NCBI GenBank assembly: GCA_022825885.1
Contig: JAJDVY010000003.1
Span: 1-64,000, forward strand
Length of the DNA: 64,000 nt
DNA from: Nitrospirales bacterium
GTDB taxonomy: Bacteria > Nitrospirota > Nitrospiria > Nitrospirales > UBA8639
Direction of reading: 5' to 3'
The position numbers were made by a program, and so were the translations under genes. Each line of letters opens with the position of its first letter. Position 1 is the first letter of the stretch. This document shows, piece after piece, positions 14,222 through 31,419 of this stretch. The notes beneath the pieces were generated by a model that saw nothing but the letters and a program-made list of their open reading frames with translations, was not told the DNA's origin and searched no databases.

Positions 14222-14323
14222 GTGATTGTAGCGTCGCGATCTCCGCTATAGGTCAGGGACCTGCCTCCTCCTGTCATCCTTGCCGCTTTTAGCCAGTATT
14301 CGAATCCGTTCTTTCCTTTTTGT

Positions 14324-14448: not shown

Positions 14449-14520
14449 AAAGAGAGTTGTTTTTCTTCGTTCCACAGAGCATGATGGGGTCTCTTGTTAC
14501 CTTCAAAGGAGTTGTACTCA

Positions 14521-15083: not shown

Positions 15084-15098
15084 CCGGATAGACAACCC

Positions 15099-15929
15099 AT
15101 GCCGAATCCCGATCATCCCGTCGTCGAACGCACGGACATAAACCCTTTTGCCGTTGTCACCGGAGCTTCACGAGGCATCGGGGCCGCCTATGCCCGCCTC
15201 CTTGCGAGCCGGGGCTACGACCTGTTGCTGGTCTCCCGTGACGAGACTCGGCTCACGCAACTCGCCCGTGAACTCCAGACAAACCACCACATTCAAGCCC
15301 ACGTATCCATCGCCGATCTGGCCAGGCCTGACGCCGCCCATCAATTATTCGTCGAAAGCCGGCAATACCGGCAGACCCCGGACATGCTGATCAATAACGC
15401 CGGATTCGGATTGTACGGAGAATTCGTCTCCCACCCGCTGCCGCGCATCCAGGAGATGCTGCACGTGCACGTGCGAAGCGTGGTGGAAAGCATCCGGTTA
15501 TTTCTGCCGGGGATGATCGAGCGCGGGTCCGGGACCATTATCAACGTGGCCTCCATCGCCGGCCTGCTCCCTATCCCGCATTTCGCGGAATATGCCGCGA
15601 CCAAAGCGTTCCTGGTGTCGTTTTCAGAAGCATTGGCCGAGGAAACGCGCGACACCGGCGTGGTGGTCCAAGCCTGTTGCCCGGGACAAACGGAGACCGA
15701 TTTTCATATCACGTCCGGCTTTTGTCCACCCAGCCTCCTACCCATGCAAACGGCCGGCGAGGTGGCCCACACGTCCCTGGCCGCGTTACCGAACAAGGGC
15801 CCGGTCGTCACCATCGGCTGGCAGGGCACGCTAACGGCTTTGGCGATGAAATGGTTGCCGCGGACGTTCCTCATCAGAACCGTGGGCCGAATCACCAGAC
15901 TGGCAACCCGGTCAGGCCCCGTTGCTTGA
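15099..15929 (+). CDS. Short-chain dehydrogenase/reductase
   Basis: 276 residues. Classical SDR motifs are present: TGASRGIGAAYA (Rossmann glycine loop), NNAGFG, the catalytic serine in IINVASIAG, the YAATKA catalytic Tyr-Lys pair and PGQTETDF after it. An arginine in VSRDE at the end of strand 2 suggests NADP(H). The C-terminal 60 residues have a hydrophobic stretch near LTALAMKWLPRTFLIRTVG. The substrate is unknown; DltE/SadH-like enzymes are the nearest I can recall. Its 3' end overlaps the convergent SRAP gene by 18 bases. Confidence 0.85.
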   Translation: MPNPDHPVVERTDINPFAVVTGASRGIGAAYARLLASRGYDLLLVSRDETRLTQLARELQTNHHIQAHVSIADLARPDAAHQLFVESRQYRQTPDMLINNAGFGLYGEFVSHPLPRIQEMLHVHVRSVVESIRLFLPGMIERGSGTIINVASIAGLLPIPHFAEYAATKAFLVSFSEALAEETRDTGVVVQACCPGQTETDFHITSGFCPPSLLPMQTAGEVAHTSLAALPNKGPVVTIGWQGTLTALAMKWLPRTFLIRTVGRITRLATRSGPVA

Positions 15930-16604
15930 CCGTTCGTCCAAAGCTTCGAGGCAACGCGCGTCGTCCACTCGTGGATCGTTGACCAGCCGGCTGACCGGCA
16001 CCGCAATCATGGCGTCTGCGGGATAGGGCGTCAGGAACGGGACCAGACGCGTCGCATCCCGCAACCCGGGGTCCAGCCACGGGTCATACGCCGCGGGCGG
16101 TAAGATAACCGGCATCCGGTCATGGATTGAGGCCAGACCTTCGTTGGGCGTCGTGGTGAGGATGGCGCACGATTCGATGGGTTTCCCATCGGCACCCGTC
16201 CACCGGTCCCACAGCCCGGCAAACGCAAACGGGCGTTCACTGCTCAACCGGATATGGTAGGGCTGTTTTCGCGTGCCTTCCCGTTTCCATTCATAGTAGC
16301 CGTCCGCCAACACCAGACAGCGACGTTCCCGAAACGGTCTTCGAAAGGACGGCTTTTCCGCCACGGTTTCCGCCCGGCCATTGATGAGCTTCATCCCCAT
16401 GGCGGAGTCCCTGGCCCACGAGGGAACCAGGCCCCACCGCAACGTGACCGTCTCGCGTTTCGGCGACCGGAGCCCTGCCCGCAGACAAGCGACTTCTTGG
16501 GAGGGTGCCACGTTATAGCGGGGTTGAAGATCCGGAATGGTTTCGAGTTGAAACGCTTCGGCGAGGACCTCAGGCGTGCAGGTCAGGGTATACCGTCCGC
16601 ACAT
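15912..16604 (-). CDS. SRAP domain protein (HMCES/YedK), abasic-site DNA-protein crosslinker
   Basis: 230 residues. Cys2 after the initiator Met (MCGRYTL) is the residue that forms a thiazolidine with abasic sites in single-stranded DNA. PRYNVAPSQ, the NGRAET loop, the ADGYYEWK glutamate block and the late histidine in IHDRMPVIL are all conserved. The family shields abasic sites at replication forks. Its start lies 22 bases inside the peptidase gene on the same strand, so it may be the tail of the restriction-modification operon. Confidence 0.9.
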   Translation of the reverse strand: MCGRYTLTCTPEVLAEAFQLETIPDLQPRYNVAPSQEVACLRAGLRSPKRETVTLRWGLVPSWARDSAMGMKLINGRAETVAEKPSFRRPFRERRCLVLADGYYEWKREGTRKQPYHIRLSSERPFAFAGLWDRWTGADGKPIESCAILTTTPNEGLASIHDRMPVILPPAAYDPWLDPGLRDATRLVPFLTPYPADAMIAVPVSRLVNDPRVDDARCLEALDERSSNGA

Positions 16605-16912
16605 CCTGCTTGCACCCGCAACTCTGCCTCCGCACGCTCATAATCCCCCAAATGCGCCCTCATCAAACTTTTCCACAACTTTCCATGATTCGGCACAGAA
16701 AAATGAAGGAGTTCATGCACAATGACGTAATCCCATAAGCTCTGCTTGAGGTCTAACAGTTCGGCATTGAAATTAAGATACCCGTTCGTTGAGCAAGAGG
16801 CCCACTTATTTCGCATCGGGCGCACGCCCAGCCAAACGACGTCCACGTCCAATTTTGCGGCCCATGCCCTCACGCGCTCCTTAAAAACCTTCTTTTGCTC
16901 CGTTTCACTCAT
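16583..16912 (-). CDS. YgjP-like (DUF45/M48-type) metallopeptidase
   Basis: 109 residues. Zinc motif HELLH followed by NHGKLWKSLM, and the family feature MRNKWASCSTNGYLNFN. It is about half the usual 230-residue YgjP length and lacks the N-terminal part; the short form is typical of those next to type I restriction genes. It starts three bases after the hsdR stop. The role in restriction loci is unknown; control of HsdR turnover has been speculated for other proteases. Confidence 0.8.
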   Translation of the reverse strand: MSETEQKKVFKERVRAWAAKLDVDVVWLGVRPMRNKWASCSTNGYLNFNAELLDLKQSLWDYVIVHELLHFSVPNHGKLWKSLMRAHLGDYERAEAELRVQAGCADGIP

Positions 16913-16915
16913 GCT

Positions 16916-19813
16916 CTAGATTCGATCGGCTTTGTCCAAAAGCGTAAACAGATCATCCACTATCGTTGTCACCTTATCCGGGTCGTCAAACTCGGCAAAA
17001 ATGGCGAAAGTCACTTTCTGGCGCAGATCCCGTAACGCAGCTTCGCTTTTCTTCCAATCAGGATATTCCGCAAACGCCGCTTTTATCTTGCTGCTGACAT
17101 TCTCAGCTTCCCCGACCCCCACGTCCAGTAAGGTGCGATACACGAAAAACGTAAAGCCATCGAATCCCTTCGCTTGTTGTTCTTTCTTTCGCTCTTCATT
17201 CTTCTCAATTTCCCGCAAGAGTTCCTCCAGCACCTCGCTTGCCGTATGCTGGCGTCGTTCAAACTGCTGTTGTACAGCCCGAGCACGTTCAGCCATGGCC
17301 AACAGGAACGGATCATCACTGTTTTCTTCCGCAATCTTTTCTATGCTTTTTACAAGATTGATGACCTTTATGGTTTCTCCACCTTTTGTAGCTTTGATGA
17401 CCTCTACCGTCTCGGCATCAATCCTCAATAACTCAATCGGCGGCGTTACTCCGTAAATGCGAATATTCTCCCGCACCAGTTCGTTTGTTTTGCGCTGAAA
17501 CTCTTTATCCACAATGACGTACCTGGTGTAAATCTTACGCACCGTGGCATAGATCTCTGAAAGTGTACGATAATCATCAATAAACGGCCGTAAAAACGCA
17601 TCGGGCGAAATAATCTCGTACAGCATTTCAATTTCTTTATATTCCTTGAAAAAGACTTTACGGCGTTCAGGGTCACGAAAATGCTCGATGAGTGCGTCAA
17701 CGTCCTTATCATCAAAATGCCGTGTGATCAGGCCAAGATAGGCCGGGGCTCGTTGTTCCATCTTGTCCTGAAACAACACCTTCAACAGCTTGAGATCTTT
17801 GACGATTGCATTGATCTCATCACTATCAAAGGCCAGCGCCTTTTCCAAATTATCAAAAACACCCACGAAATCGAGCACAAACCCATGCGGTTTCACCATG
17901 CCACGGTCTTCATTTTCATAGGGCCGATTCACCCTGGCAATCGCTTGCAACAAGGTGTGGTCGCGCATAGGCTTGTCGAGATACATCGCGTAAAGCACAG
18001 AGGCGTCGAAACCGGTTAACAGCTTCTCGGTGACGATCAGAATCCTGGGTTGCTGCTCCAGTTTTCCAAACGCCTTTCGGACTTGCCGCTCTTCCTGTTT
18101 ATCCAGGTGGAACGCCTTGAGCAACCTGGAATCATTATTGTTTCCCGTGTAAACGACCCTGGAATACTCCGGCGGCAGGTGCTCATCAAGCGCATGCTTG
18201 TAATGGGCACAGGCTTCGCGGTCCACACCGACCAGAAACGCCTTGTACCCCAAAGGTTCGACGTTTTCCTTGTAATGCATGGCGACATATTCGGCTACCT
18301 GCTTGATGCGTTCATTGCCCTTGAGGAAATTCTTCAGGTTCACCGCCCGCTCAAGGATCTTGTTCAGTTCATCGATGTCGGCCACACCCTCGGCTTCGGC
18401 GAGAGAGAGAAACTCCTTGTCCAGCGTCTCGTGCGGGACGAGCATTTCGTTGGGGGCGAGCTGGTAGTAGAGCGGCAGCGTGGTGCCGTCCTCAATGCTG
18501 TCGGCGATGGAATACTTATGCAGGTAGCCCCGGTCATCCTCGCAGCCAAAGGTCTTGAAGGTGCCTTTACCATACACCGTCTTGTCCACCGGGGTGCCGG
18601 TGAAGCCAAGGTAGGTGGCATTCGGCAAACCGGCCATGAGAAAGTTGCCCAGGTCGCCGCCGGTGGTGCGATGGGCTTCGTCGATGAGGACGTAAATATT
18701 CGAGCGCATGTTGAGATTCGCCGGCATGTCGCGGAATTTGTGGATCATCGTCACGATGATGCCCCGGTAGTCGTCCCTCAGCAACCGGTTGAGCCGGGCG
18801 ATGCTGCCGGCGTGCTCCAGGTTGCCCAGGCCGAGCGCGGCAAGGTTTTTGAGCATCTGGTCTTCCAGTTCGTTGCGGTCGATCATCAGGAGGACGGTCG
18901 GCTTGTCCGCCTTGGGTGCGCGGAACAGCAATTCCGCGGCCTTGATCATGGTGAAGGTTTTTCCGCTGCCCTGGGTGTGCCACACAAGGCCACGGGAGCG
19001 GTCAGATGCGAGGGCGCGCTCAACGCTCGCTTCCACCGCGCCGGTCTGGTGCTGGCGCAGGATGTATTTGTTCAACTCCTCGTCCTTCTCGGCAAAGACG
19101 ATGTAGTCCTTCAAGAAGGCGAGCACCTGCGGGATGGCGCAGAAACTCTTCACCTTGGCCTCCAGCTTGCCAACCTCCTCATGTTTCCAGTTGAAAATGT
19201 TCCGGCGCACCGTGTTCCAACTCACCCCGTAGGAGAAGCCGATGGCATCGGTGGCGGTGAAAAGCTGTTCGGGCACGAACAACTCCGGCGTCTCGCGGTG
19301 ATAACGGCGAATCTGGTCCACTCCGAGGGCAATCGCCTCATCCTTGCTGGCGTTCTTGCACTCGATCACCAGCACGGGAATGCCGTTGATGAGAAAGACA
19401 ATATCCTGCCGCGTACCGTAGTGGCCGTTGTGAAAGGCCCATTCCTCGGTAACTTCGTACACGTTGCGCGTCGGGTCTTCGTAATCGATCAGGATGAGGT
19501 CGCGCTCGCGGCTCTCATCAACATCGAAGAACTTGCCCCGGTTGCGCAGGTGTTCGACGAATTCCCGGTTACCGTAAATGTCGGCGTGGAGATGGCGGAA
19601 CTGGCCGAGCAAAAGCCCTTTGGCCTCGGCATAGCGCGGATTGAATTCCCGCACCTTGGCGTCAAGCAGGTCGTCGAAGAAGAGGGACAAAGGAGCGGGA
19701 GTGCCCCCTCTCCTTTGCTCGGCTTCCTCACGGGACACAAACGTCCAACCAATGGCCTCGGCGTAGGCGAGAATACGGGCCTGGACGGTTTTGTGCTCAC
19801 CTGGCTTAGGCAT
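16916..19813 (-). CDS. hsdR: Type I restriction enzyme, R subunit
   Basis: 965 residues. The N-terminal nuclease has GIPVLVIECKNASKDEA (the PD-(D/E)XK ECK motif). The motor has HTQGSGKTFTM (Walker A), LIDEAHRT (DEAH box), GFTGTPVDKT and QAIARVNRPY (helicase motif VI). It translocates DNA and cuts it far from the HsdS site. The full length suggests activity. Base composition shifts: the 5' two-fifths are GC-rich, while the 3' part (16916-18300) is AT-richer, hinting at a mosaic. A fragment of a second hsdR start lies at 21017-21085, on the far side of the DUF1016 gene. Confidence 0.93.
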   Translation of the reverse strand: MPKPGEHKTVQARILAYAEAIGWTFVSREEAEQRRGGTPAPLSLFFDDLLDAKVREFNPRYAEAKGLLLGQFRHLHADIYGNREFVEHLRNRGKFFDVDESRERDLILIDYEDPTRNVYEVTEEWAFHNGHYGTRQDIVFLINGIPVLVIECKNASKDEAIALGVDQIRRYHRETPELFVPEQLFTATDAIGFSYGVSWNTVRRNIFNWKHEEVGKLEAKVKSFCAIPQVLAFLKDYIVFAEKDEELNKYILRQHQTGAVEASVERALASDRSRGLVWHTQGSGKTFTMIKAAELLFRAPKADKPTVLLMIDRNELEDQMLKNLAALGLGNLEHAGSIARLNRLLRDDYRGIIVTMIHKFRDMPANLNMRSNIYVLIDEAHRTTGGDLGNFLMAGLPNATYLGFTGTPVDKTVYGKGTFKTFGCEDDRGYLHKYSIADSIEDGTTLPLYYQLAPNEMLVPHETLDKEFLSLAEAEGVADIDELNKILERAVNLKNFLKGNERIKQVAEYVAMHYKENVEPLGYKAFLVGVDREACAHYKHALDEHLPPEYSRVVYTGNNNDSRLLKAFHLDKQEERQVRKAFGKLEQQPRILIVTEKLLTGFDASVLYAMYLDKPMRDHTLLQAIARVNRPYENEDRGMVKPHGFVLDFVGVFDNLEKALAFDSDEINAIVKDLKLLKVLFQDKMEQRAPAYLGLITRHFDDKDVDALIEHFRDPERRKVFFKEYKEIEMLYEIISPDAFLRPFIDDYRTLSEIYATVRKIYTRYVIVDKEFQRKTNELVRENIRIYGVTPPIELLRIDAETVEVIKATKGGETIKVINLVKSIEKIAEENSDDPFLLAMAERARAVQQQFERRQHTASEVLEELLREIEKNEERKKEQQAKGFDGFTFFVYRTLLDVGVGEAENVSSKIKAAFAEYPDWKKSEAALRDLRQKVTFAIFAEFDDPDKVTTIVDDLFTLLDKADRI

Positions 19814-19816
19814 GGA

Positions 19817-20995
19817 CTACCCTCTGTGCGTCTTTGCGGGTAAGCGCAGGGCCGCGCTCAATTGTTTAGGCGTTGGGAGTTTGCCTCTGAGCTCCTTCGG
19901 CAACGTAGCTTGTCGTTGATATTTTGCCACGCCGATAGGATTGGTTTTGCTCTTCAGTGCGAACTCTACTTCCAGGTTGTCTTTCTCCGCACACAGGATG
20001 ATGCCGATAGAAGGGTTGTCGTCTTTGGCTCGCTCTTTTTCATTGAGCACGTTGAGATAGAAATCCATCTTGCCGGCATATTCCGGCTTGAATGGCCCCG
20101 CTTTCAGTTCAAAGGCAACCAACGACTTGAGAAAGCGGTGATAGAACAGCAGATCGATGAAATACTCCTTGTCGCCCAACGTCAGACGATGTTGCCGTCC
20201 CACGAAACAGAAGCCATAGCCCAGTTCCAGGATGAAATCCTGCAATTGCTCAATCAGCCGACTCTCAAGCTCTCGTTCTTTTACCTCGTGCGAAATCCCT
20301 AAAAATTCGAGATTGTACGAACTCTTGAGGGCTTCTTCCGCCTGTTCGGCGAGATGTTCGGGCAACGCGGCAGGAAAATTGTGCAACTTGCCTTCGGCCA
20401 GACTATGCTCATAAGCCTCTGCTTTAATCTGGTTCAGCAGAACATTGCGCGTCCAGCCAAATTGTGCCGTGGCACGCAGATAGTAGAGGCGTTCGACAGG
20501 TTTGGTCACCTTCTTCATGATCTCGACATGATGTCCCCATGGCACCAACGACACCAAATCTCGCACAACCTGTGCGAGATTTTCTGGAACAGCGTGTTCC
20601 AGAACTTCTCCTGCAATTCGATCTCGCAATTCCGGAACGGTCTGTTCCAGAAATTCAGCGATCTTAAGGTGCTTCAATCCTTTGCTGGCCTGTGAGAGAA
20701 ATTCGTGGCTGGAATATCCACTGTAGAACTGACGCATCCGCCAAAGGTTGTCAGATGAAAAGCCAGTCATCTGCGGAAATTCTATCTTCAAATCCCGTGA
20801 CAGGGTTTCCACAACAGCTTTACCCCAACCCAGATCCTCCTGTTTCTCCACAATCCCGCGCCCGATATCCCAATACAGCAGGATCAACTCGCGGTTCACC
20901 GCGCGCGCCGCCGAGATCCGCGCCGATTGAATGCGCAATTTTACCTCGCCTAGCCAGGCGGCGTAGTCAGGAGAAGGGATTAGTTTGTCAGGCAT
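19817..20995 (-). CDS. DUF1016 (YhcG-like) PD-(D/E)XK nuclease
   Basis: 392 residues. The N-terminal helical DUF1016_N region (INRELILLYWDIGR-type block, here NRELILLYWDIGRGI) is followed by the C-terminal nuclease with YFIDLLFYHR, FELKAGPF and the family hallmark GIILCAEKDNLEVEFAL. Such proteins often accompany type I restriction or toxin modules, and their role is unclear. It ends three bases before hsdR begins. A duplicated hsdR start on its other side suggests that it was inserted between hsdS/RT and hsdR. Confidence 0.88.
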   Translation of the reverse strand: MPDKLIPSPDYAAWLGEVKLRIQSARISAARAVNRELILLYWDIGRGIVEKQEDLGWGKAVVETLSRDLKIEFPQMTGFSSDNLWRMRQFYSGYSSHEFLSQASKGLKHLKIAEFLEQTVPELRDRIAGEVLEHAVPENLAQVVRDLVSLVPWGHHVEIMKKVTKPVERLYYLRATAQFGWTRNVLLNQIKAEAYEHSLAEGKLHNFPAALPEHLAEQAEEALKSSYNLEFLGISHEVKERELESRLIEQLQDFILELGYGFCFVGRQHRLTLGDKEYFIDLLFYHRFLKSLVAFELKAGPFKPEYAGKMDFYLNVLNEKERAKDDNPSIGIILCAEKDNLEVEFALKSKTNPIGVAKYQRQATLPKELRGKLPTPKQLSAALRLPAKTHRG

Positions 20996-21016
20996 AGTTC
21001 ATTCGCTGGAATCAAG

Positions 21017-21085
21017 CTACGCCGATAGCCTCGGCGTATGTAAGAATGCGGGCCTGGACGGTTTGTGTTCCGAGGGAGTGGGCAT
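21017..21085 (-). pseudogene. Remnant of an hsdR 5' end
   Basis: From ATG 21085 the sequence parallels the start of hsdR (19813 downwards): both read ATGCC, then GAxCACAAA, CCGTCCAGGCCCG, ATTCT, and TACGCCGAGGC. A single missing A after the eighth codon shifts the frame, and a TAG ends it after 22 codons. It is therefore a scar of a former hsdR start directly behind the reverse transcriptase gene. Confidence 0.8.
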
Positions 21086-21102
21086 GTTTAATTTTCTAGT
21101 AA

Positions 21103-24100
21103 CTAAATAAGCTTGCCGGAATTATCCCAATCAGCAGGAGGTTCTTTCCATTTACCACGAGGAAGAAGACCAGGACTTGGGATGCGAACTGTATTATCAG
21201 CGAGAGATTGCTTAGGACGCTCAACAAGCTTTCGTGGATCAACTTCAGCAAATGCGATCGCAGCTTGGGGTTGGCCATGCAGATGGAAAATCTGGCGCTC
21301 GTTGGCATTATGATATGGCAGGAAAAAACTGCTACCGCCAAACTGTCCGTTGTTTACAAGAATCACGCCTTGAAACATATGGTAGTGGAGAGCCTCAGTC
21401 ATTCGATCAAAAGTCCCCACATCCTTGTTTAAAGCACACACAATGTAGAGATCGCTTCGTGATCTTAGGTCTGCCGCGAGTGCGATATCGGTAGCGTCGT
21501 AGCAAATTGATGCCGTCAACCGTAATGGGCGATTTGCGTCTGTGTCGGTGTGCCATTGGTAATCAATCAACCATTGGACTGGACGAAATTCGACTGGTGC
21601 AGGAGAAAAACTCTTTTCATGTGGCGTCAGATGACGCTTTCCTTGCTCGATCCTTTTGATCTGAAGTCCGTGGGCCGGAGTCCACTCTGGAATCAACCAA
21701 AGAGCGCTGTTAATCAATGGCGAGCCTGCCGCGTTATCTTTGGGATGATAGACTTGTCCAATCAATACGATGCATCTGTGCTGCCTGACAAACGGTAGAA
21801 TCAGCGAATTGATGTCATCTGGATGGACCGCCAACTCTGGAAATATTAAAAGATCAAGGCTTCCATGATCAGGGCTTGGAGAGTCGATGTGTGTCGTCCG
21901 AATCTGCAACATTTGTGTGATCCCTCGTATAACTGATGCGAGATGAGTCATTTGTCGTTTTCGATTCGAACGTCCGTTAAGCTGAAGATTCGAACGATTA
22001 TTATCGTAGTCTTCGGAATTTGGGATCACTGATTGCACAATTCCCACTCGTAGCAGTCGTGAGTCCACTCCCTCTGGAGGCTTGGATGACCATGGGGCGG
22101 ATTGCTCAAGGAAAGTAGAAGATGTGAACTGGCCGCGCTTTTTTCTGATCACGTGCAGCCGATCCTGAATGCTGGTAAGAAGTTGAGAGATTGGCTTGAT
22201 TTCGGTCATGACACCAGACCCCGGCCATCTCAGTAGCTCAAAAAGCAAATTCTCCGTAAACGACGAAATCGGCATCCAGGCCGGACCAAAACCATCCCGT
22301 CCCTGATATCCTGAATACCTCTGTTGCTCCCAATGCGCAGTCGGTTTGGTATAACACGGTTTTCGATATGGCATTTTCGACAGTTGTCTACTTAAGAAGT
22401 CAGTCTTGCCGCAAAGCGCATAACGGAGTAACAGCCCCACATTGAATCGTTGACGATCTTCATCGCCTTCGCACCACTCGGGTGCTTCAAAGAGGTCCGT
22501 GGCAAAATCTCCAGCTGCCTCAATACCAAACGACTGGGATGAAACCTTACCGAATTCATAACCAGATGGAGTTGGATTTTCCTTGCTACAGCGAATCCTC
22601 GAAGGGGAAATCGCCTCTCTAAATTTTGTCGGTTCTTGGCTGAGTAAGAACTCTGCCAATTGAAGAAGGTTTTCCTCTTCATAGAAGGGGTTGACCTCTC
22701 CGGCTGCAATGTGCGCCAAAGTGCGCTTAAAGGAGATCGAAGTTGGTGCCTCAATACCGATCCGCACTGCAATTTGTTTCGCTCTGTCGCCAGATTTTAT
22801 GCCGAACACAGCCCAGAGTTCCTTTGCCAGCGAGGGTGAAATTGAATTCACTCGGGTCAAAAACGCAGGTGCGATTCGGTTTATTGCAGAAAGATATGTG
22901 AACCCAGAGATCCCTAAAGCAGTGTGTGCTTCGACTAACATGATTGATCGTTCATCAAGTTTTTTGAGTGTGTCTCCACGAAGAAACTTTAAGAGGACCC
23001 AGTAGGGGCGCATCAGCGGCCCCCCGCGTGCATTCGTTTCCAATACGGCATCCGGAACTTTATTTCTTGCAGCCAGATACAGAAATACCTGTTGCATCAA
23101 ATACCAGGGGAACCGCGACGATGAAGCCTTTCCCGCTAAGTATGCATCAAATACCTCTCGGGCTTCTTGAATAAGCCTGTCGTGGTAATCGTTAATTGAA
23201 ACATCGGATGGCAAACACTCCGATTCATCCAAAGGGACAATCCCTGTTTCGGTTGCTCCAGCACGGAAAAGCTCGGCGAGACAGTAAAGTCTAACTTCTC
23301 GTTTTACCTTTCTGTATTTTGGGGATTCCCAGCCTAGGCGCAGTAGTTTGAGAACTTCCTCCAAGAAATTTTGATCCGGATAAATATCGAGGGCAATGCG
23401 GAGCAACCGAATGTTGCCAGGGTTTTTGATCCATTCCTCGATCAGCCCGGCGCAAAACAATTTCCCCCGTTCATCAAGCTGCGATTTTGAGAGAACGAGC
23501 CTTACATGTGGGATTGGGGCTTCAATACCGTCATCGTCTTCTGAGGGTGTTGGTCTGGATTCAATTTCATCGGCAAGTAGCGGTCGAAGAGAACGGAATG
23601 TCCGCCTGAACTTTCCGGCACTAAAACGGGCGGCGGTGTCGTCAGCCATATCGGGAACTCCTACAAGAAGGCTATCTGTTTCCGCGTCAACTGAAGTGGA
23701 ATAGTGCTGTTGCGTGTGGAAGAATCCTTCGATTGCTTTGATAAGCTCAGTGCCATGAAGCATATCAAACGTGCCAGAGACTTCCGTTTGAATTCTTGCG
23801 GCTTCCAGTGATTGCCTTATAAGGAATCGTTTGTCTCTTCCTTCAATGATGACCTTAGTCTTCTCATCCAAGACTCTCATTCCATCCGCTGTTGAATCGA
23901 GCGTGTTCTGTAACATTTTTCTCACTTGCGTCCGCACGTCAATGTGACGACATCCCCGCGAGACCGTCAAAACCATCCGAAAATCGTCTACATAGTAACA
24001 GACATCGCGAAGAACCAGATTCAGATGCCGATCAATAACCGTGCCAATCTGTTCTCTCAGAGCTGTCTCGAAATCCAGGAGAGCAATATTCGCGAAAAAG

Positions 24101-24945
24101 CCACTGGCCACTAATCCTTGAGGCAAGGCAACCTTTTCAAAACTTGGAATATCGTGTTCCTTGGAGTAACCATGGGCACGAGCGGCGTCAGTCCACCGCC
24201 AGTCAAATAAGCGCTCTGCTAATTGGAAAAAAGAATCTTCGTCCTCTTCGGTCTGAAGCATCCACAGCTTGGAATGCAGCAGCGAAGGACGGACCCGGTC
24301 ATAGAAGTTCGCCAAATCGCTTTGGATAATAGCGATCTCAGTATCATTACTGGCTTCTTCGCTGTTTGCATCTAGTTCCATAGCGACAATTTTGGGACGT
24401 TCCAAGAATGTCTGATAATCTTGAAAGTAGCTTCGATACAGCTTTGAGCTACCCCAGCGGTGTCGTAGGGAATCGCCATCTTCATCACAAAAGAGTCGAT
24501 GGCCGTATGCAAGGGTTTTCTTGCGATTCCTTTCAGTTGCTACAGACAATCGCGGGTCTCCGAGACGAGTCTCAACTCTGTCCGCGAGGCAGAGCATCAT
24601 TGCAGTCGCTATAACCTGATCTTGCAGGTCTACGTGTGCTAGCGGACGAAGTTTCTTTTGAATGTTCTTTTCCTTCGGAGACCATTTGTCCTTGACGTAG
24701 GCCCAACGTTGATTCTTTGGCGCTGGAACCATGTGCAAGGGCCTTGCTGCCAATTCCTCGGGAGCCTTAAGGCGAGCCTGTATTTCACGGATAAATTGGG
24801 GTATCCGCAGTGCTTCAATATCTAATCCGAGTGTGTCGGCATACCAACTGTGATAACGAAGATACGTTGAGGTCTTTTTCCACGCCTGCATCAACACGCA
24901 TTCCAGCGACAAATCCTCAAGGGTCGGGCGTATAAATCGTTTCAT
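21103..24945 (-). CDS. Reverse transcriptase-nitrilase fusion, DRT class 1 (UG1-like) defence protein
   Basis: 1280 residues. Residues about 60-420 form a reverse transcriptase: motif A IIQSDLANFYD (Asp210), motif B-like LPQGLVASGFFANI and the catalytic YVDD at 319-322. A long helical middle region follows. The last 250 residues are a carbon-nitrogen hydrolase with Glu1037 (FPELAV), Lys1111 (HEKSF) and Cys1148 (SICYDATD), the complete nitrilase triad. This architecture is that of defence-associated reverse transcriptase type 1, known to protect against phage. Its ATG overlaps the hsdS stop by four bases, so it is produced with the restriction system. All active-site residues are present, so it is probably active. 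The composition is AT-richer than hsdM. Confidence 0.9.
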   Translation of the reverse strand: MKRFIRPTLEDLSLECVLMQAWKKTSTYLRYHSWYADTLGLDIEALRIPQFIREIQARLKAPEELAARPLHMVPAPKNQRWAYVKDKWSPKEKNIQKKLRPLAHVDLQDQVIATAMMLCLADRVETRLGDPRLSVATERNRKKTLAYGHRLFCDEDGDSLRHRWGSSKLYRSYFQDYQTFLERPKIVAMELDANSEEASNDTEIAIIQSDLANFYDRVRPSLLHSKLWMLQTEEDEDSFFQLAERLFDWRWTDAARAHGYSKEHDIPSFEKVALPQGLVASGFFANIALLDFETALREQIGTVIDRHLNLVLRDVCYYVDDFRMVLTVSRGCRHIDVRTQVRKMLQNTLDSTADGMRVLDEKTKVIIEGRDKRFLIRQSLEAARIQTEVSGTFDMLHGTELIKAIEGFFHTQQHYSTSVDAETDSLLVGVPDMADDTAARFSAGKFRRTFRSLRPLLADEIESRPTPSEDDDGIEAPIPHVRLVLSKSQLDERGKLFCAGLIEEWIKNPGNIRLLRIALDIYPDQNFLEEVLKLLRLGWESPKYRKVKREVRLYCLAELFRAGATETGIVPLDESECLPSDVSINDYHDRLIQEAREVFDAYLAGKASSSRFPWYLMQQVFLYLAARNKVPDAVLETNARGGPLMRPYWVLLKFLRGDTLKKLDERSIMLVEAHTALGISGFTYLSAINRIAPAFLTRVNSISPSLAKELWAVFGIKSGDRAKQIAVRIGIEAPTSISFKRTLAHIAAGEVNPFYEEENLLQLAEFLLSQEPTKFREAISPSRIRCSKENPTPSGYEFGKVSSQSFGIEAAGDFATDLFEAPEWCEGDEDRQRFNVGLLLRYALCGKTDFLSRQLSKMPYRKPCYTKPTAHWEQQRYSGYQGRDGFGPAWMPISSFTENLLFELLRWPGSGVMTEIKPISQLLTSIQDRLHVIRKKRGQFTSSTFLEQSAPWSSKPPEGVDSRLLRVGIVQSVIPNSEDYDNNRSNLQLNGRSNRKRQMTHLASVIRGITQMLQIRTTHIDSPSPDHGSLDLLIFPELAVHPDDINSLILPFVRQHRCIVLIGQVYHPKDNAAGSPLINSALWLIPEWTPAHGLQIKRIEQGKRHLTPHEKSFSPAPVEFRPVQWLIDYQWHTDTDANRPLRLTASICYDATDIALAADLRSRSDLYIVCALNKDVGTFDRMTEALHYHMFQGVILVNNGQFGGSSFFLPYHNANERQIFHLHGQPQAAIAFAEVDPRKLVERPKQSLADNTVRIPSPGLLPRGKWKEPPADWDNSGKLI

Positions 24946-26129
24946 CTGCCAGCAGTTTCAACAGGGGGGAAATCTGATACGTGAACGCGGATTTTCGCGG
25001 TCATCAGGTCGTGAAGGAGGGTACGGAAGAGGGCCTGAAGTTCGTCCCGCTTAGCAGTGGCAAAGCTGATCTTTTGATCCGTCGCACTGAAGGCTTCCGC
25101 GATACCTTTCTGCTCCTCTACGGTCGGTAGCGGAACCGGCCACGGTTTGAGAAACTGGATGTTGATGTTTTTCTGAGTCCCTTTTGGTGCGAGCCGATCC
25201 ATTTGCGGTTGCTGGGTCATCAGGTAATAGTTCAGAAACACTGTCTCAATACATTTCAATGGGGAGACTCCGATGAGGCTGTCGGGACAGGCAGAATCAA
25301 ATTGTAAAATTCCAGTAAACCCGATGTTCGCTGCAATGGTGATGAGGATTGTTCCGGCTGGAAACATCTTGCTTATGGCTAGACCTTCCTCGTTTAGCGT
25401 CTGCGTGTATGAACGAACGTAGCCGTCGCAATTGGAAACATCGCCAGTTTGAACGAAAGGATATGCCCCTCCGTAAAAGCGGGATTCGTTTCGAGGTCGA
25501 TATGAAAATTTTCCCCGCTCAATTCTGGCTATTTCACCCAACTGTTTGACATCCCAACTCTCGGGTATAAGCCCGATTTCAGTTTGTTTTTGGGGTTCGT
25601 TGCGGAGGCCTTCGGTGAAGAGCTTGTGCATGAGGGTCTTTTTCAACTCGGTGGTGGTCTGAATGATTCGCTCCTGCACTTCGATTGCCCGTTGCACCGT
25701 CGAAAGGACGTGCGCGATTTTCTTCTGCTCGGGGAGTGGGGGGCGGGGAAGGCTCCGTTCTTTTAGCACTTTGAAGTGCCGATTGTAGCCTCGGCTCGGA
25801 ATTTCAAGGGCCACCAAAGCAAAATAATAGAACTTCGGGTCATAGATGTCTTTGTTCGGAACCAGAACCTTAGTGCCGTCAGCCCCCAGCACGAATGGGA
25901 AGTCGACATATTTGAAACAGCGCGTGTGATCTCCAAAGATGACGAGTGGTGCATCGAAATCGATCAGTTTCTCCTGATCATCACAATATCCCGCAATCAA
26001 CTCCTGACCTTGATCGACAACTGGGAACTCACCAGTTGTGGCAATGTCTCTCGAGGGAATCTGATGCTTCCGACCGACCTTAATTCTTATGAAGGAATCC
26101 CGCACTACACATGTTGCCCAAGCACTCAT
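24942..26129 (-). CDS. hsdS: Type I restriction-modification specificity subunit
   Basis: 395 residues with two target-recognition domains, each followed by a conserved helix. The first half ends with LPRPPLPEQKKIAHVLSTVQRAI and the second with VPLPTVEEQKGIAEAFSATDQK, the repeated spacer helices that set the gap in the bipartite target. The recognised sequence cannot be predicted. Start and end each overlap neighbours by four bases (hsdM before, RT after). In-frame domain order and length are normal. Confidence 0.92.
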   Translation of the reverse strand: MSAWATCVVRDSFIRIKVGRKHQIPSRDIATTGEFPVVDQGQELIAGYCDDQEKLIDFDAPLVIFGDHTRCFKYVDFPFVLGADGTKVLVPNKDIYDPKFYYFALVALEIPSRGYNRHFKVLKERSLPRPPLPEQKKIAHVLSTVQRAIEVQERIIQTTTELKKTLMHKLFTEGLRNEPQKQTEIGLIPESWDVKQLGEIARIERGKFSYRPRNESRFYGGAYPFVQTGDVSNCDGYVRSYTQTLNEEGLAISKMFPAGTILITIAANIGFTGILQFDSACPDSLIGVSPLKCIETVFLNYYLMTQQPQMDRLAPKGTQKNINIQFLKPWPVPLPTVEEQKGIAEAFSATDQKISFATAKRDELQALFRTLLHDLMTAKIRVHVSDFPPVETAGR

Positions 26130-27751
26130 ACCCCAATCTTCTCCAGAATTTTCCGCAAGGCCTTGTCCGCTTCCTTGGCTTCAGCTTCAATCACATCCAG
26201 TTCCTCTACGATCTCCTCAAGCGGTCGATAGGTCTCTGCTTCGCCGGTGTGGATGTAGCGGCTGGGGGAGATATTGTAGTCGTTTTTCTTCAACTCGGCG
26301 CGATCCACGATGCGGCTGAGTTTTTCTTCTTCCTTCCACTTGATCAGGGTGTCGGCGATGCAGGCGATGCCCTCGGGCGGGATGAAGTTTTTGGGGTCGC
26401 CCTTTTCAAAAATCCGGCTGGCATTGACGAGGAAGATCTTGCCTTGCCGGGCTTTGGGCTTCGCCTTGTTGAGGAAGAGGACGATACCCGGAGCCGTGGT
26501 GTTGTAGAAGAGATTTTCGGGCAGGTAGAGGACGCTCTCGATCAGGTCCCGGTCAACGAACCACTGGCGGACGGTTTTTTCCTTGTTGGTGCCGGCGTTG
26601 CCCGAACCTCGGGAGGCGGCGCCGGTGTCGAGGACGACGGCGGCGCGACCGGTGGCATTGAGGCTGGCGTGCATATGCTGGACCCAGCCCCAGTCGGCGG
26701 AAGATTTGCCGGGGAAACCGGCCCCGGTGGGGAAGCGGTCGAGTTCGTCATTGTCGTAGTCGGCCTCCGTGTACCAGTCCTGATTCCACATGGGATTGGC
26801 GATGACGCGGTCGAAGGTGCGGAGTTTGCCGCTTTTTTCGGCGCGGAACCTGGGGTTCTTGAAGGCGTCACCGATCTCGATCTGGCCTTCCATGTCGTGG
26901 ATGATCATATTCATGTTGGCCATGGCCCAAGTCTCGGGGACGTATTCCTGGCCGAACAGTTTGAGGGGCAGGGGTGCGTCTTTCGTCTTTTGGGCGTCTT
27001 TCGTCTTTTGGGCGGCTTTCATTTTTGCCTGCATGGCGAGTTCACACTTGATGAGCAGGCCACCGGAGCCGCAGGTAGGGTCGTAGATTTCCATGCCCGG
27101 ACCGGGGGCAAGGACGCGGGCCATGATCTCGCCGACTTCGCCTGGGGTGTAAAACTCGCCGGCGCTCTGGCCGCTGCCCTCGGCGAACTTGCGGATAAGG
27201 TATTCGTAACTCTTGCCGATGATGTCGGGCTCGACGTCCTCAAGCCCAAGCCGCTTGGTGCTGATGGCCTCAATGAGGTTGGAGAGGCGGTCGTCGTCGA
27301 GGTCGCGCTGGCCGTGGGTGGTGGCGTTGAAATCGACGCGGTTGATGATGCCTTTCAGAAGCGGATTTTCCCGAGCGATCTCGCGCATATAAGTGGTGAC
27401 GCCTTCGCCGATCTTATCGGAGAGTTTACGGATGACCGACCACACGGGCTGCTCTGTATCTTTTGGCATCAGCGGCAGGTAGAAACGAACCATTGCCTTT
27501 TTCTTATCCGCAACTCTCCGCCAATCAGCTACAACCAGTTGGAAGGCTTTCTCTCGCGAGCCCACCTCAGTAGCGATACGATTCAGTTCATCATCAAACA
27601 CATCGCAGAGACGTTTAGCGAAAATAAGCGGCAAGATGTAATCTTTATACTTTGGCGCGTCTTTTGCCCCACGAATGGAACACGCGGCATCCCATATCCA
27701 GGACTCCAGCGATTTATCGTTCGCTTCTGTATTTTTCTTGTTCTTCGACAT
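26126..27751 (-). CDS. hsdM: Type I restriction-modification DNA methyltransferase
   Basis: 541 residues. The N-terminal helical HsdM_N domain (WDAACSIRGAKDAPKYKDYILPL) precedes an adenine-N6 methyltransferase with the SAM loop DPTCGSGG and catalytic motif NPMW in VIANPMWNQDWY (usual form NPPF). GEFYTPGEV is also conserved. With HsdS it methylates the target and directs HsdR. It is first in the operon, with AAGAAGA ahead of ATG 27751. The 288-base gap upstream should contain the promoter; I cannot pick one with confidence. Confidence 0.93.
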   Translation of the reverse strand: MSKNKKNTEANDKSLESWIWDAACSIRGAKDAPKYKDYILPLIFAKRLCDVFDDELNRIATEVGSREKAFQLVVADWRRVADKKKAMVRFYLPLMPKDTEQPVWSVIRKLSDKIGEGVTTYMREIARENPLLKGIINRVDFNATTHGQRDLDDDRLSNLIEAISTKRLGLEDVEPDIIGKSYEYLIRKFAEGSGQSAGEFYTPGEVGEIMARVLAPGPGMEIYDPTCGSGGLLIKCELAMQAKMKAAQKTKDAQKTKDAPLPLKLFGQEYVPETWAMANMNMIIHDMEGQIEIGDAFKNPRFRAEKSGKLRTFDRVIANPMWNQDWYTEADYDNDELDRFPTGAGFPGKSSADWGWVQHMHASLNATGRAAVVLDTGAASRGSGNAGTNKEKTVRQWFVDRDLIESVLYLPENLFYNTTAPGIVLFLNKAKPKARQGKIFLVNASRIFEKGDPKNFIPPEGIACIADTLIKWKEEEKLSRIVDRAELKKNDYNISPSRYIHTGEAETYRPLEEIVEELDVIEAEAKEADKALRKILEKIGV

Positions 27752-28039
27752 CGCTGTCTTCTTGTAAAAAACCTAATGCATCCAAACTTAAAAATTCATG
27801 ACGATTCGCTTAAGAGAGGATGTCATAGGTCATTGAAAAGATAGAGTTGGGCATTCGGACGTGCCGCATCAAACCCTGATGAATCTATACTTATGCGGCT
27901 GTGTCGTACAACCTGGAAGAATTGCTATCAAATGGCTGAGAAATTTTTGACGTGCGGTCTGATCGGACGCTCTGACGGGTGCCGTTTGGCGAGATACAGA
28001 TAGTGCGGATTCTTTCGGTTTCTTCAAAACGGCCTGTCG

Positions 28040-28504
28040 TTACCACCCCTGCGTTTTGAAGTGAAGTCTGACCGTCAATTCTCCGCTAACGGGATCATCC
28101 CCGTTCATCTGAGGATTGAACGTCCATTGTTTAAGCGCTTGGACGCCGGCTAAGTTGATAAGGCGATTTTTCGCGGGGACCAGAACCACGAGTGTGGTCT
28201 CCGCCGTCCTGCTGACCAGAATGCGGGCTTTCATCCAGTCATCGACTTCCTGGCCCTCCAACGCCGGCGGCATGGTAGGCCACGGGGTGTACGTGGGGAC
28301 CGGCCCGAGCTGTTGATCTTTGTTCAGCTTCAATCCATGCACGTGCACGGTTTCCAGGACCTCCACCCGTTCGTCCTCCAAATGATCCGATTCATGGGTG
28401 GGACCATCGACTTGACTCCAGACAGCCAGAGGGCTCATTACACAGAAGACCGTCATCGCCACGAGAAACATCCTGGAGTCGTTCATCTTGCACACCTTCT
28501 TCAT
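28040..28504 (-). CDS. TonB C-terminal-like periplasmic protein
   Basis: About 154 residues with an N-terminal membrane or signal segment (MFLVAMTVFCVMSPLAVWS). A C-terminal domain ends QALKQWTFNPQMNGDDPVSG then ELTVRLHF, which is the TonB-type fold pattern of small energy-transducer-like proteins. There is no proline-rich spanning linker, so it is not a full TonB. I favour ATG 28504 behind AGGAAAG; GTG 28519 and ATG 28486 are alternatives. It follows the LytTR regulator by 60 bases on the same strand and may be part of that unit. Confidence 0.6.
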   Translation of the reverse strand: MKKVCKMNDSRMFLVAMTVFCVMSPLAVWSQVDGPTHESDHLEDERVEVLETVHVHGLKLNKDQQLGPVPTYTPWPTMPPALEGQEVDDWMKARILVSRTAETTLVVLVPAKNRLINLAGVQALKQWTFNPQMNGDDPVSGELTVRLHFKTQGW

Positions 28505-28564
28505 CTCTTCTTTCCTCACGGATTCAGCCTTCTCCTTCCAAGGGAGAGGATGGAAGAAAACCCC

Positions 28565-29371
28565 TTAGACCTGCAGGAGATGGTCGCGGAGTGTTCGAGA
28601 TTGCCCGCGGCTCACTCGTATTTGTTGGGTATTCGTCAACGTCACGAGATAGGAGCCTCCCGGCATGGGCGTAATTTTCCTGATCGTCTCGACGTTGACC
28701 AAGGCCCCGCGACTGACGCGAAGAAACCGCTTGGGATCGAGCTTGGCTTCCAATATTTTCAACCGATAATTCATCGTATATCGCTCCTTGTCAATCGTCG
28801 TCACGTGCATCAACTCCCCTTCCGAGACCACTGAAGCAATACGGCGAACGGGTAACAAATAAATATCATCCCGTTTCCGAATGGGAAGCCGATCGATGTA
28901 CTCCCCCACAATCGCCGGCAATCCACGATCAGCGGGGGCGGGCTGCCCGTTACGCCTGCCCTGCGCGACGTCGAAGGGTTCCGGTTCCGCCAATGAGGCC
29001 CGTTCGCGTCTTTCATGAGCGCGATCAATGGTTGTGCGAAGACGGCTTGGCTCAACGGGTTTGAGCAGATAATCCAACGCTTCAATTTCAAAGGCACTCA
29101 CGGCATGTTCCTCAAACGCCGTCACAAAGGCCACCAGCGGGATTCGCCCCTGGTGCAAGGAGCGGACAATGGACAGGCCATCCATTTCCGGCATTTGCAA
29201 ATCAAGGAAGGCCAGGTCGGGTTGCGTTTGCTCAATCAATCGAATGGCCTCTCTGCTGGTTTGGGCTTCCCCCACAACGTCGACGTCTTCAAATGCGGTC
29301 AGCATGGTCACCAGAAACTGCCTTGCCGGACGTTCATCATCAGCGACGATCACGCGTAACGTCATGGCCAT
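28565..29371 (-). CDS. LytR/AlgR-type response regulator
   Basis: 268 residues. The receiver domain has the acidic pocket VADDE, phosphorylated Asp in LAFLDLQMPEMDG and the switch Thr/Lys in VTAFEE and YLLKPVEP. The C-terminal LytTR domain ends MPGGSYLVTLTNTQQIRVSR. The linker contains EPFDVAQGRRNGQPAP, whose DNA looks like an inserted short dispersed repeat (CTGCGCGACGTCGAAGGGTT). The start overlaps the kinase stop, so the pair is translationally coupled. Target genes are unknown. Confidence 0.92.
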   Translation of the reverse strand: MAMTLRVIVADDERPARQFLVTMLTAFEDVDVVGEAQTSREAIRLIEQTQPDLAFLDLQMPEMDGLSIVRSLHQGRIPLVAFVTAFEEHAVSAFEIEALDYLLKPVEPSRLRTTIDRAHERRERASLAEPEPFDVAQGRRNGQPAPADRGLPAIVGEYIDRLPIRKRDDIYLLPVRRIASVVSEGELMHVTTIDKERYTMNYRLKILEAKLDPKRFLRVSRGALVNVETIRKITPMPGGSYLVTLTNTQQIRVSRGQSRTLRDHLLQV

Positions 29372-31419
29372 GTCACTCCGTATCCTTGTGGAAGTGGTGA
29401 GGTGTGCGCCACCTCATGACCGTCGAGTGGGATCAGGAGGTCTACCACCGTTCCATGCTTTACGCTGCTTTCGGCGTCTATTGCGGCGCCTCGGCGTCTA
29501 CGGGAGAAGCTTGTTCGCCCATGCTTCACACTGCTTTTGACGTCTATTGCGGCGCGCTCACCGTAGTGCAGCGACAACCGTTGTCTGATGGTGGACAGAC
29601 CAAGTCCCGTCCCCCGGCCATCCCCATTACGGATGGGCCCTGCTTCCCCCCCCGTGTTCCATACTTGCATGTGCAACATCGGCGGGAAGCTCTGTTCCCG
29701 GCCATCGCTCGTTTCTTCAATCCACGCCGCAATCCGGACTCGCCCCCCCGACGCCGAAGGCTGAATGCCGTGCTTGATGGCGTTTTCCACCAATGGTTGC
29801 ACGATCAACGCCGGGATCGGCACGTCACGTACCGATCCCGGAACGTCGATATGGACCGTCAGCCGATCTTCGAAACGCATCTGCTCAATTGCCAGGTAGG
29901 CCCGTATTAAATCCATTTCATGCCCGACGGTCGTCAATTCTTTATCCAACCGCTTCAACACGCTTCTCAGGAGACCGGTCAATCGCATGAGCGTGTCCAC
30001 GGCCTTCACCGGAGACGTCTGGATCAAATAGCCGATCGTGGTAAGGGCATTGAAGAGAAAATGGGGATTCAATTGCGCGCGCAAGGCCCGCAGTTCCGAC
30101 TCCGTCGCCAACTTTTGTGTTTCCTGCTCCCTGAAGGCCTGCACACAGCGTTCGTGTGTGACTCGTACCGTGGCAATACGACGGGAAACCAGATGCGCCA
30201 ACGATTCCAAGTGATACAGGTCATCGGACAACAGCCGCCGGCCATGAGGGAGCGGCCCGATTTTGATACAATAGTGGGGAAGATCGACCGTCGGAATATC
30301 CACGGTCACATGGAGAGCGTCACACGCCACGATCGGCTTTCTCGACGGGGAACCACCTTCGATTTCCCTTTCCTGCACAGGCATCCATTCGATTGTTTCC
30401 GCGGACAGCACGCTTTTCAACATCGCGCAACATTGGTCCAGGATGGCTTCTGCCGTGTCCCGCAGCATGATGGCCTGCGCCACGTCGTCCTGGAATTTTC
30501 CGTAATCCGGTCGACGCAAGACCACCGTATCGACGACCCACGACACCCCGCGAGAAACATAGGGATAGAGCAAGGCGGTCCCGACCCACAATCCGATGAA
30601 GACCGCGTCCATCAACGGACCTGGTGGCCCCGACCGCGAAGAAAATTGAGAAGCCTCCAAGCCCACGTACAACCCCATCGCAATACCGACCAAACCCACG
30701 AGGGAGAGCGCCCGCTTTAAGAAAAGATCTCCGAAGGCGAAGCGAAAGTCCTGATACAAAATGGCAACGGCCAACGGCAATGATGCATGGTGTCCGATCA
30801 ACTCCATCCACCATACGTATTCGCCCGATTGATGGTGACTGAAGGGTATCGCTGCCGCGGCGACCACGGCCAAGGACACCACACCGGCATGGTGATCCCA
30901 CCCCTGTTGCCTGATGGTATCGGCGAGTACGATTACCAGCAACAGGACAAAGCCCATGGCCAGCAGGCTGATCGCCTCGACCGCGATGACGGTCGTTCCC
31001 GGCATGACGGCCAGCACGTTGAGCACGGCTGCCCCGGCACTCAAGGCATAGGCTCCCGCGACCGGGACGTGCCGGCTCCAACGGACGCGGTGGCGTGCGG
31101 ATTGCAGAAAGGCATGCACCACGACGGCAGGGAGAAATCCCAGGGCGGACAGCGCAGTCACTTGCAGAACGTGTTTCAGCCACTCGGGCGCGACGGCCGG
31201 AAGGAGAAACGAAGACAAGCCTCCCACGTTCCACAACAAGCCCAGAACCGCGGTCCACAGGGACAATCGCCTCAGGGGCGTCACTCGCGCACCGTCCATG
31301 TTTCGTGAGACGGACTCCCGGGACGTCTGCAACACCAGGAACAGGATCATGGCGTAGAGGACCGCGCCGGTAATGAAACCAATGGGGTGTGCAAAGAGGC
31401 TCACGGCTGTATCCGTCAT
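29362..31419 (-). CDS. LytS-type sensor histidine kinase
   Basis: 685 residues. Eight or nine hydrophobic helices fill residues 1-310. A GAF-like region and a His_kinase domain follow, with the phospho-acceptor motif QLNPHFLFNAL and ATP-binding blocks LVENAIKHG and GTGLGLSTIRQRL. The ligand is unknown. Near the C-terminus a 22-residue segment is duplicated in tandem (AAIDVKSSVKHG and AAIDAESSVKHG), encoded by two 66-base units at 29453-29518 and 29519-29584. It pairs with the response regulator whose start it overlaps. Confidence 0.9.
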   Translation of the reverse strand: MTDTAVSLFAHPIGFITGAVLYAMILFLVLQTSRESVSRNMDGARVTPLRRLSLWTAVLGLLWNVGGLSSFLLPAVAPEWLKHVLQVTALSALGFLPAVVVHAFLQSARHRVRWSRHVPVAGAYALSAGAAVLNVLAVMPGTTVIAVEAISLLAMGFVLLLVIVLADTIRQQGWDHHAGVVSLAVVAAAAIPFSHHQSGEYVWWMELIGHHASLPLAVAILYQDFRFAFGDLFLKRALSLVGLVGIAMGLYVGLEASQFSSRSGPPGPLMDAVFIGLWVGTALLYPYVSRGVSWVVDTVVLRRPDYGKFQDDVAQAIMLRDTAEAILDQCCAMLKSVLSAETIEWMPVQEREIEGGSPSRKPIVACDALHVTVDIPTVDLPHYCIKIGPLPHGRRLLSDDLYHLESLAHLVSRRIATVRVTHERCVQAFREQETQKLATESELRALRAQLNPHFLFNALTTIGYLIQTSPVKAVDTLMRLTGLLRSVLKRLDKELTTVGHEMDLIRAYLAIEQMRFEDRLTVHIDVPGSVRDVPIPALIVQPLVENAIKHGIQPSASGGRVRIAAWIEETSDGREQSFPPMLHMQVWNTGGEAGPIRNGDGRGTGLGLSTIRQRLSLHYGERAAIDVKSSVKHGRTSFSRRRRGAAIDAESSVKHGTVVDLLIPLDGHEVAHTSPLPQGYGVTWP

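What the first reader, a model, noticed from the sequence alone, without database searches (positions are those of the whole stretch)
21103..27751. DRT1-type reverse transcriptase-nitrilase built into a type I restriction operon
The RT-nitrilase gene starts inside the hsdS stop codon (4-base overlap), and hsdS likewise overlaps hsdM. A shared transcript and coupled translation tie a DRT to restriction subunits far more closely than mere neighbourhood. All catalytic residues are visible (YVDD; Glu, Lys, Cys of the nitrilase). The restriction and RT arms may act as layers, with RT output triggered if restriction fails.
Basis: partly seen in the sequence, partly recalled or inferred. Interest (0 to 1): 0.78.

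Follow-up and report, generated by a model that had tools for sequence, protein, structure and literature searches.

The report
Phage-defence enzyme carried in restriction operon
A known suicide-type phage-defence enzyme (DRT1, a reverse transcriptase fused to a nitrilase) sits inside a restriction-enzyme operon, in a gap between two restriction genes that different bacteria fill with different defence genes, so it is most likely an interchangeable second layer of defence rather than a fixed part of the restriction machine.

Summary
Confirmed: on the minus strand the order is hsdM, hsdS, DRT1, DUF1016, hsdR, YgjP, with ATGA overlaps at hsdM/hsdS and hsdS/DRT1. The 1280-aa protein is a full DRT1: it aligns nearly end to end with the solved DRT1 (9yfd, E=1e-120) and keeps the RT aspartates, priming serine, nitrilase Glu-Lys-Glu-Cys and lid residues.

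It is not unique. Seven operons, counting the window, have DRT1 between hsdS and hsdR; three truncated loci fit. All lie in one supported DRT1 subclade, across six named phyla plus the window's.

The stronger reading (an intimate tie, RT output triggered when restriction fails) is not supported. The hsdS-hsdR gap is a cargo slot. DRT1 occupies it in at least three unrelated Hsd lineages. Close relatives of this operon (HsdR 65-72% identical) carry McrBC, OLD+UvrD, Mrr or SIR2+HerA there; others have it empty. In one empty operon hsdS overlaps hsdR by the same ATGA, so the overlap belongs to the slot. A decayed 5' end of hsdR after DRT1 marks a later DUF1016 insertion.

Best reading: a modular, co-expressed second layer. 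A PrrC-like guard remains possible and testable.

The parts
26126..27751 (-). hsdM, type I methyltransferase subunit (541 aa; motif IV NPMW)
   Evidence: Pfam N6_Mtase and HsdM_N; motif shared by relatives
24942..26129 (-). hsdS, specificity subunit (395 aa), ATGA overlap with hsdM
   Evidence: Pfam Methylase_S, two stretches; junction
21103..24945 (-). DRT1, reverse transcriptase-nitrilase (1280 aa), ATGA overlap with hsdS
   Evidence: PADLOC Drt1a; 9yfd; residues; junction
21021..21085 (-). decayed copy of the 5' end of hsdR, starting 17 bp after the DRT1 stop codon
   Evidence: alignment to own hsdR score 58 against shuffle maximum 29; score 67 to the hsdR start of L037, which lies 18 bp after its DRT1 stop
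19817..20995 (-). DUF1016/YhcG PDDEXK nuclease gene (392 aa), second slot cargo
   Evidence: Pfam YhcG_C and DUF1016_N; PADLOC PDC-S02
16916..19813 (-). hsdR, restriction and translocation subunit (965 aa)
   Evidence: Pfam HSDR_N, SWI2_SNF2, T1R_D3-like
16583..16912 (-). YgjP-like metallopeptidase gene, regular last gene of these operons
   Evidence: Pfam YgjP-like; present after hsdR in most relatives

Best explanation
The locus is a type I restriction operon (hsdM-hsdS-[slot]-hsdR-ygjP) whose hsdS-hsdR slot carries two accessory defence genes: DRT1 first, then a DUF1016 nuclease. DRT1 is an exchangeable cargo, made from the same message as HsdMSR. It most likely acts on its own, as described for the DRT1 tested in E. 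coli: the RT domain adds untemplated DNA to Ser390; the DNA-tagged protein assembles into a quiescent filament; a phage replication factor (the Dda helicase in T4) releases the C-terminal nitrilase, which stops the infected cell. Restriction is the first layer and DRT1 the abortive second layer for phages that get past it. Shown here: gene order, overlaps, conserved residues, recurrence, slot exchange, lineage incongruence. Inferred: one transcript, priming and filament behaviour (by homology to 9yfd), and the order of the layers.
For: Every residue named as essential in PMC13275509 that could be mapped is conserved, including the priming serine, invariant in 79 of 79 rows. DRT1 sits in the same slot of at least three unrelated Hsd lineages (HsdR 30-35% identical). 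Within one Hsd lineage DRT1 has diverged out of step: L030 to L036 about 0.9 changes per site for DRT1 against about 0.2 for HsdR. Related operons carry other defence genes in the slot, or none. In congener G277 a decayed sibling operon at the same chromosomal site (hsdM 96%, DUF1016 90% nt identity) has no DRT1. The hsdR remnant records an insertion after DRT1. Most sampled DRT1s have no hsd or N6-methyltransferase neighbour: 40 of 61. No terminator-like site lies on the operon's strand.
Against: All hsd-embedded DRT1s found fall in one subclade, whereas pure cargo could come from any DRT1 lineage. DRT1 is nearly always the first slot gene, next to hsdS (exception L034). DRT1 also sits beside other modification-based systems (DISARM DrmMI, Ssp, IIG-type), perhaps more often than a random cargo would. 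No transcript or phenotype data exist for this operon.
Confidence: 0.75

Rival explanations
1. PrrC-like guard: DRT1 is held silent by, or senses, the Hsd complex, and is released when a phage blocks restriction.
For: PrrC, an anticodon nuclease gene embedded in a type IC operon, works this way (PMC3874165, PMC2610378, PMC12707154). DRT1 is normally the first slot gene, next to hsdS, in several phyla. The embedded proteins form one subclade.
Against: The subclade sits in unrelated Hsd lineages and also outside type I operons (L067 in an Ssp operon, L032 beside a PLD/SNF2 helicase and a IIG enzyme), so no conserved HsdMS contact is expected. PrrC is reported as invariably linked to type Ic systems; DRT1 is not. 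DRT1 has its own autoinhibition and phage trigger (PMC13275509).
Confidence: 0.15
2. Passive neighbours: an insertion in a tolerated place that is co-transcribed but brings no combined benefit; the recurrence reflects whole-operon transfer plus shared insertion tolerance of the slot.
For: Close Hsd chassis with and without DRT1, and empty-slot forms, exist side by side. In L030, L031, L036 and L094 closely related operons lie in different phyla, as transfer would give.
Against: The same slot was used in at least three Hsd lineages; slot contents in relatives are mostly defence genes; all catalytic residues are kept.
Confidence: 0.08
3. The DRT1 gene is a decayed or repurposed copy without DRT1 activity.
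For: Some relatives are split or truncated (L029, L037, L090).
Against: The window gene is open over 1280 codons with every known essential residue.
Confidence: 0.02

Closest known systems
DRT1 (UG1 RT-nitrilase; PDB 9yfd, PMC13275509)
   Same: Near full-length homology (E=1.1e-120), same domain order, RT aspartates, priming serine, nitrilase tetrad and lid motif
   Different: Lies in a type I operon instead of standing alone or next to drt1b; only 27-29% identical to the gammaproteobacterial plasmid DRT1s aligned here; most of its subclade has a Trp after the PPA(G/D/N) lid motif
EcoprrI-PrrC (type IC operon with an embedded anticodon nuclease)
   Same: An abortive-infection effector gene embedded in a type I operon (PMC3874165); its exact place between hsdS and hsdR is from own knowledge
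   Different: Unrelated effector; PrrC is reported as invariably linked to type Ic systems and silenced by them (PMC2610378), whereas most sampled DRT1s have no hsd neighbour and no silencing by Hsd is known
Type I operons of the same NPMW-HsdM lineage with other slot genes (L124-L130, L132-L134)
   Same: HsdM and HsdR homologous (HsdR 43-72% identical), same gene order, tight junction after hsdS in most
   Different: Slot holds McrBC, OLD+UvrD, Mrr, SIR2+HerA, AAA, AIPR or nothing, not DRT1
L037 (Chlorobiaceae MAG)
   Same: Nearest DRT1 (about 70% identical) and nearest HsdR (79%); DRT1 directly before hsdR
   Different: No DUF1016; hsdR starts 18 bp after the DRT1 stop; contig ends inside DRT1, which is split into two frames; HsdR interrupted in frame by a RAYT-like insert

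Membership tests
DRT1 (UG1) | RT domain fused to a C-terminal nitrilase in one chain of about 1200 aa | tested here: met
   PADLOC Drt1a 1100 bits over residues 5-1245; 9yfd aligned over residues 6-1239
DRT1 (UG1) | RT catalytic aspartates | tested here: met
   D210, D320, D321; the last two align with D324/D325 of 9yfd; invariant in 79 of 79 rows
DRT1 (UG1) | Single priming serine (S402 in the solved protein) | tested here: met
   S390 aligns with S402, invariant in 79 of 79 rows
DRT1 (UG1) | Nitrilase Glu-Lys-Glu-Cys tetrad | tested here: met
   E1037, K1103, E1110, C1148 (= C1116)
DRT1 (UG1) | C-terminal lid residues needed for defence (K1219, A1223) | tested here: met
   K1267 and A1271 by the conserved K..PA motif; the last residues of 9yfd were not in the printed alignment, so the match is by motif and spacing
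[quoted passage not shown]
   needs biochemistry and phage assays
Type I restriction-modification | HsdM, HsdS and HsdR with their domains in one operon | tested here: met
   Pfam and PADLOC matches
Type I restriction-modification | Methyltransferase motif IV (N/D)PP(Y/F/W) | tested here: inconclusive
   the window has NPMW; so do all nine checked relatives of this lineage, so it is a lineage trait and not decay; activity not testable
PrrC-like restriction guard | Effector gene embedded in a type I operon | tested here: met
   relatives
PrrC-like restriction guard | Invariable linkage to one type of R-M system | tested here: not met
   40 of 61 DRT1 loci with both flanks show no hsd/N6-MTase gene nearby; embedded ones sit in at least three Hsd lineages
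PrrC-like restriction guard | Silenced by the Hsd complex, activated by an anti-restriction protein | not testable with these tools
   needs co-expression and pull-down experiments

The most novel reading that the evidence does not exclude
The hsd-embedded DRT1 subclade is wired to the restriction complex: HsdMS, or its loss, gates the DNA-tagged DRT1 filament, giving a restriction-failure alarm with an RT-nitrilase as killer, a second and unrelated PrrC. More broadly, this DRT1 lineage may be a regular effector module of modification-based systems (type I, Ssp, DISARM-like, IIG-type).
Probability: 0.15. Interest if true: 0.75.

Novelty: new variant of a known kind. Interest (0 to 1): 0.5.

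Why it matters
DRT1 was characterised in 2026 as a stand-alone abortive-infection protein, and the open-access papers found here do not mention hsd operons. Finding it repeatedly in the hsdS-hsdR slot gives a concrete, testable case of two defence layers on one message, and a set of natural slot variants (DRT1, McrBC, SIR2, OLD and others, or empty) on related Hsd chassis. It also shows that a start-stop overlap by itself is no evidence of functional coupling, because the overlap belongs to the slot.

Tried and rejected
(1) That the overlap is special to DRT1: rejected; L128, L132 and L175 (hsdR itself) show the same ATGA overlap. (2) That DRT1 and Hsd co-evolved as one system: rejected by the HsdR and HsdM trees and the distance ratios. 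(3) A viral source: no DRT1 relative in INPHARED phages, none confirmed in IMG/VR. (4) An associated known non-coding RNA: no Rfam match in 14000-30000. (5) Promoter and terminator pattern counts are at chance level overall and are only weak support. (6) Foldseek gave RT-fold matches only, because the structure copy predates 9yfd. (7) NPMW as a sign of a dead methyltransferase: rejected as a lineage trait. (8) Gao 2020 (10.1126/science.aba0372) and 10.1093/nar/gkac467 were not held, so a prior mention of the hsd association there could not be checked; this limits the novelty claim.

Full report
The observation. On the minus strand the window holds hsdM (27751-26126), hsdS (26129-24942), an RT-nitrilase (24945-21103), a DUF1016/YhcG nuclease gene (20995-19817), hsdR (19813-16916) and a YgjP-like gene (16912-16583). 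The RT-nitrilase is Drt1a by PADLOC with 1100 bits over almost its whole length, and its only solved sequence relative is DRT1, 9yfd, E=1.1e-120.

What the protein is. On an alignment of 79 rows including 9yfd, the RT aspartates (D210, D320, D321), the priming serine (S390 = S402) and the first nitrilase Glu (E1037) are invariant. K1103, E1110 and C1148 (= C1116) are conserved in 76-78 rows, and the lid motif K..PA (K1267, A1271) in 71-72. PMC13275509 shows by mutation that the RT aspartates, the serine, the cysteine and lid residues are needed for defence. The window protein therefore passes every DRT1 feature that sequence can test. An AlphaFold2 model of residues 1-1200 has mean pLDDT 79 and pTM 0.82; a fold search returns RT-fold proteins only, because the structure copy is older than 9yfd.

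Is the placement unique? No. A scan of one genome per species kept 78 loci. Six have DRT1 between hsdS and hsdR: L030, L031, L034, L036, L074, L094. Three more fit but are truncated or decayed: L037, L080, L090. With the window that makes ten, in Thermodesulfobacteriota, Gemmatimonadota, Latescibacterota, Verrucomicrobiota, Pseudomonadota, Chlorobiota, one unclassified bacterium and the window's own phylum. hsdS overlaps DRT1 by ATGA in L030, L031, L074 and the window; in L036 and L094 the DRT1 start lies about 25 bp after the hsdS stop; in L034 another gene lies between. All ten fall in one subclade of 18 rows with SH-aLRT 99. Of 61 DRT1 loci with at least 3.5 kb on both sides, 6 lie between hsdS and hsdR, 8 are adjacent to an N6-methyltransferase or hsd gene, 7 have one within the flank and 40 have none. 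The sample is biased towards the window's relatives, because the scan kept the best 80 of 243 matches.

The slot is general. Starting from HsdR instead of DRT1, the window's phylum gave eleven other loci of the same Hsd lineage. None has DRT1. Between hsdS and hsdR they carry McrBC (L124), an OLD-like ATPase plus UvrD (L125), an Mrr-domain protein (L126), SIR2 plus HerA (L128), an AAA ATPase (L132), AIPR (L133), SIR2 plus AIPR (L134, the second type I operon of the window's own genome) or nothing (L129). In the other main Hsd lineage, eight further operons found through HsdR also show no DRT1 in the parts seen, and in four hsdS is followed by hsdR with nothing between (L175, L177, L180; L179 with 175 bp). 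In L175, whose HsdR is 76% identical to that of L030, hsdS and hsdR overlap by the same ATGA that joins hsdS and DRT1 in L030. The overlap is therefore a property of the slot. Beside DRT1 the slot can hold more cargo: DUF1016 (window), AbiE plus a Schlafen/AlbA protein (L031), AbiE (L080), GmrSD (L036), Fic and a MazE-like/PIN pair (L090).

DRT1 moves between operons. In the HsdR tree the window and L037 are nested inside a lineage otherwise without DRT1. L030, L031, L036, L080 and L094 (with L074 and L090) form another, and L034 a third. Window HsdR is only 30-35% identical to these. Inside the second lineage L030 and L036 differ by about 0.2 changes per site in HsdR but about 0.9 in DRT1, whereas the pairs L036-L094, L030-L031 and window-L037 have DRT1/HsdR ratios of only 1.3-1.9. 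A uniformly faster DRT1 would not give both; exchange of DRT1 within the slot would.

A scar in the window. From 17 bp after the DRT1 stop codon (21085-21021) lies ATGCCCACTCCCTCGGAACA..., a frameshifted copy of the first about 65 bases of hsdR (alignment score 58, shuffle maximum 29). In L037, the nearest relative, an intact hsdR begins in that place, 18 bp after the DRT1 stop codon, with the same start (score 67). The ancestor was therefore hsdS-DRT1-hsdR, and the DUF1016 gene with the present hsdR start was brought in later, most likely by recombination in the 5' end of hsdR (inference).

Chromosomal history. Five congeners have the flanking TonB-like and SRAP genes next to each other with no operon between them. 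A sixth, G277, has at the same site a decayed sibling operon with 96% identical hsdM DNA and 90% identical DUF1016 DNA, no DRT1, an AAA ATPase fragment and a 454-aa gene of no Pfam family. Of 14 genomes of the genus only one other has DRT1, a frameshifted copy at another place and of another DRT1 clade.

How it most likely works. DRT1 does not depend on Hsd: most sampled DRT1s have no hsd neighbours, and the DRT1 tested in E. coli defends alone, by untemplated DNA synthesis on its serine, a quiescent filament and a nitrilase that acts in infected cells, with T4 Dda needed for activation (PMC13275509). In this operon it should be made together with HsdMSR; no terminator-like site lies on the operon's strand (weak evidence). 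Restriction would act on incoming unmodified DNA and DRT1 on phages that reach replication. That order of layers is inference. For DRT1 the exchange between unrelated Hsd lineages argues against a conserved contact, but does not exclude one.

Verdict. The locus is a new variant of a known arrangement: an abortive effector as cargo of a type I operon.

Noticed in passing
L045, L046, L049, L067, L093, L100: A RecD-like helicase gene (PADLOC PDC-S68 where tested, about 1250 aa) starts within -52 to +25 bp of the DRT1 end in two distant DRT1 clades. Since T4 Dda, a 5'-3' helicase, is needed to activate DRT1 (PMC13275509), a host RecD-like partner is a lead worth testing.
   Followed up: partly
L044, L083, L102 (also L081): DRT1 directly follows a DISARM-type methyltransferase (DrmMI): abutting or overlapping its end in L044, 6-33 bp after it in L083 and L102, 222 bp after a weaker match in L081.
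   Followed up: partly
L067:1-17441: DRT1 of the same subclade lies in an Ssp-type operon: SspF, a 520-aa gene, SspH, a class-V aminotransferase (cysteine desulfurase-like), DRT1, RecD-like helicase.
   Followed up: partly
L046, L049: A recurrent four-gene order: PLD/SNF2 helicase, IIG-type methyltransferase, DRT1, RecD-like helicase.
   Followed up: partly
window 26126-27751 and L124-L134: This HsdM lineage has NPMW instead of NPPY/F in methyltransferase motif IV, conserved across all nine checked relatives.
   Followed up: partly
L037:3698-7690: HsdR of the Chlorobiaceae relative carries in-frame repeat and RAYT-transposase-like insertions, giving 1331 aa.
   Followed up: no
L029:7795-11464: The DRT1 of congener G065 is split into two overlapping frames: a broken gene or an assembly error.
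   Followed up: no
L152:4811-8653: Decayed sibling hsd operon at the same chromosomal site in a congener, with an AAA fragment and a 454-aa gene of no Pfam family where DRT1 would be.
   Followed up: partly
window 16583-16912 and relatives: A YgjP-like metallopeptidase gene follows hsdR in nearly all operons of both main Hsd lineages, as if a regular fourth component.
   Followed up: partly
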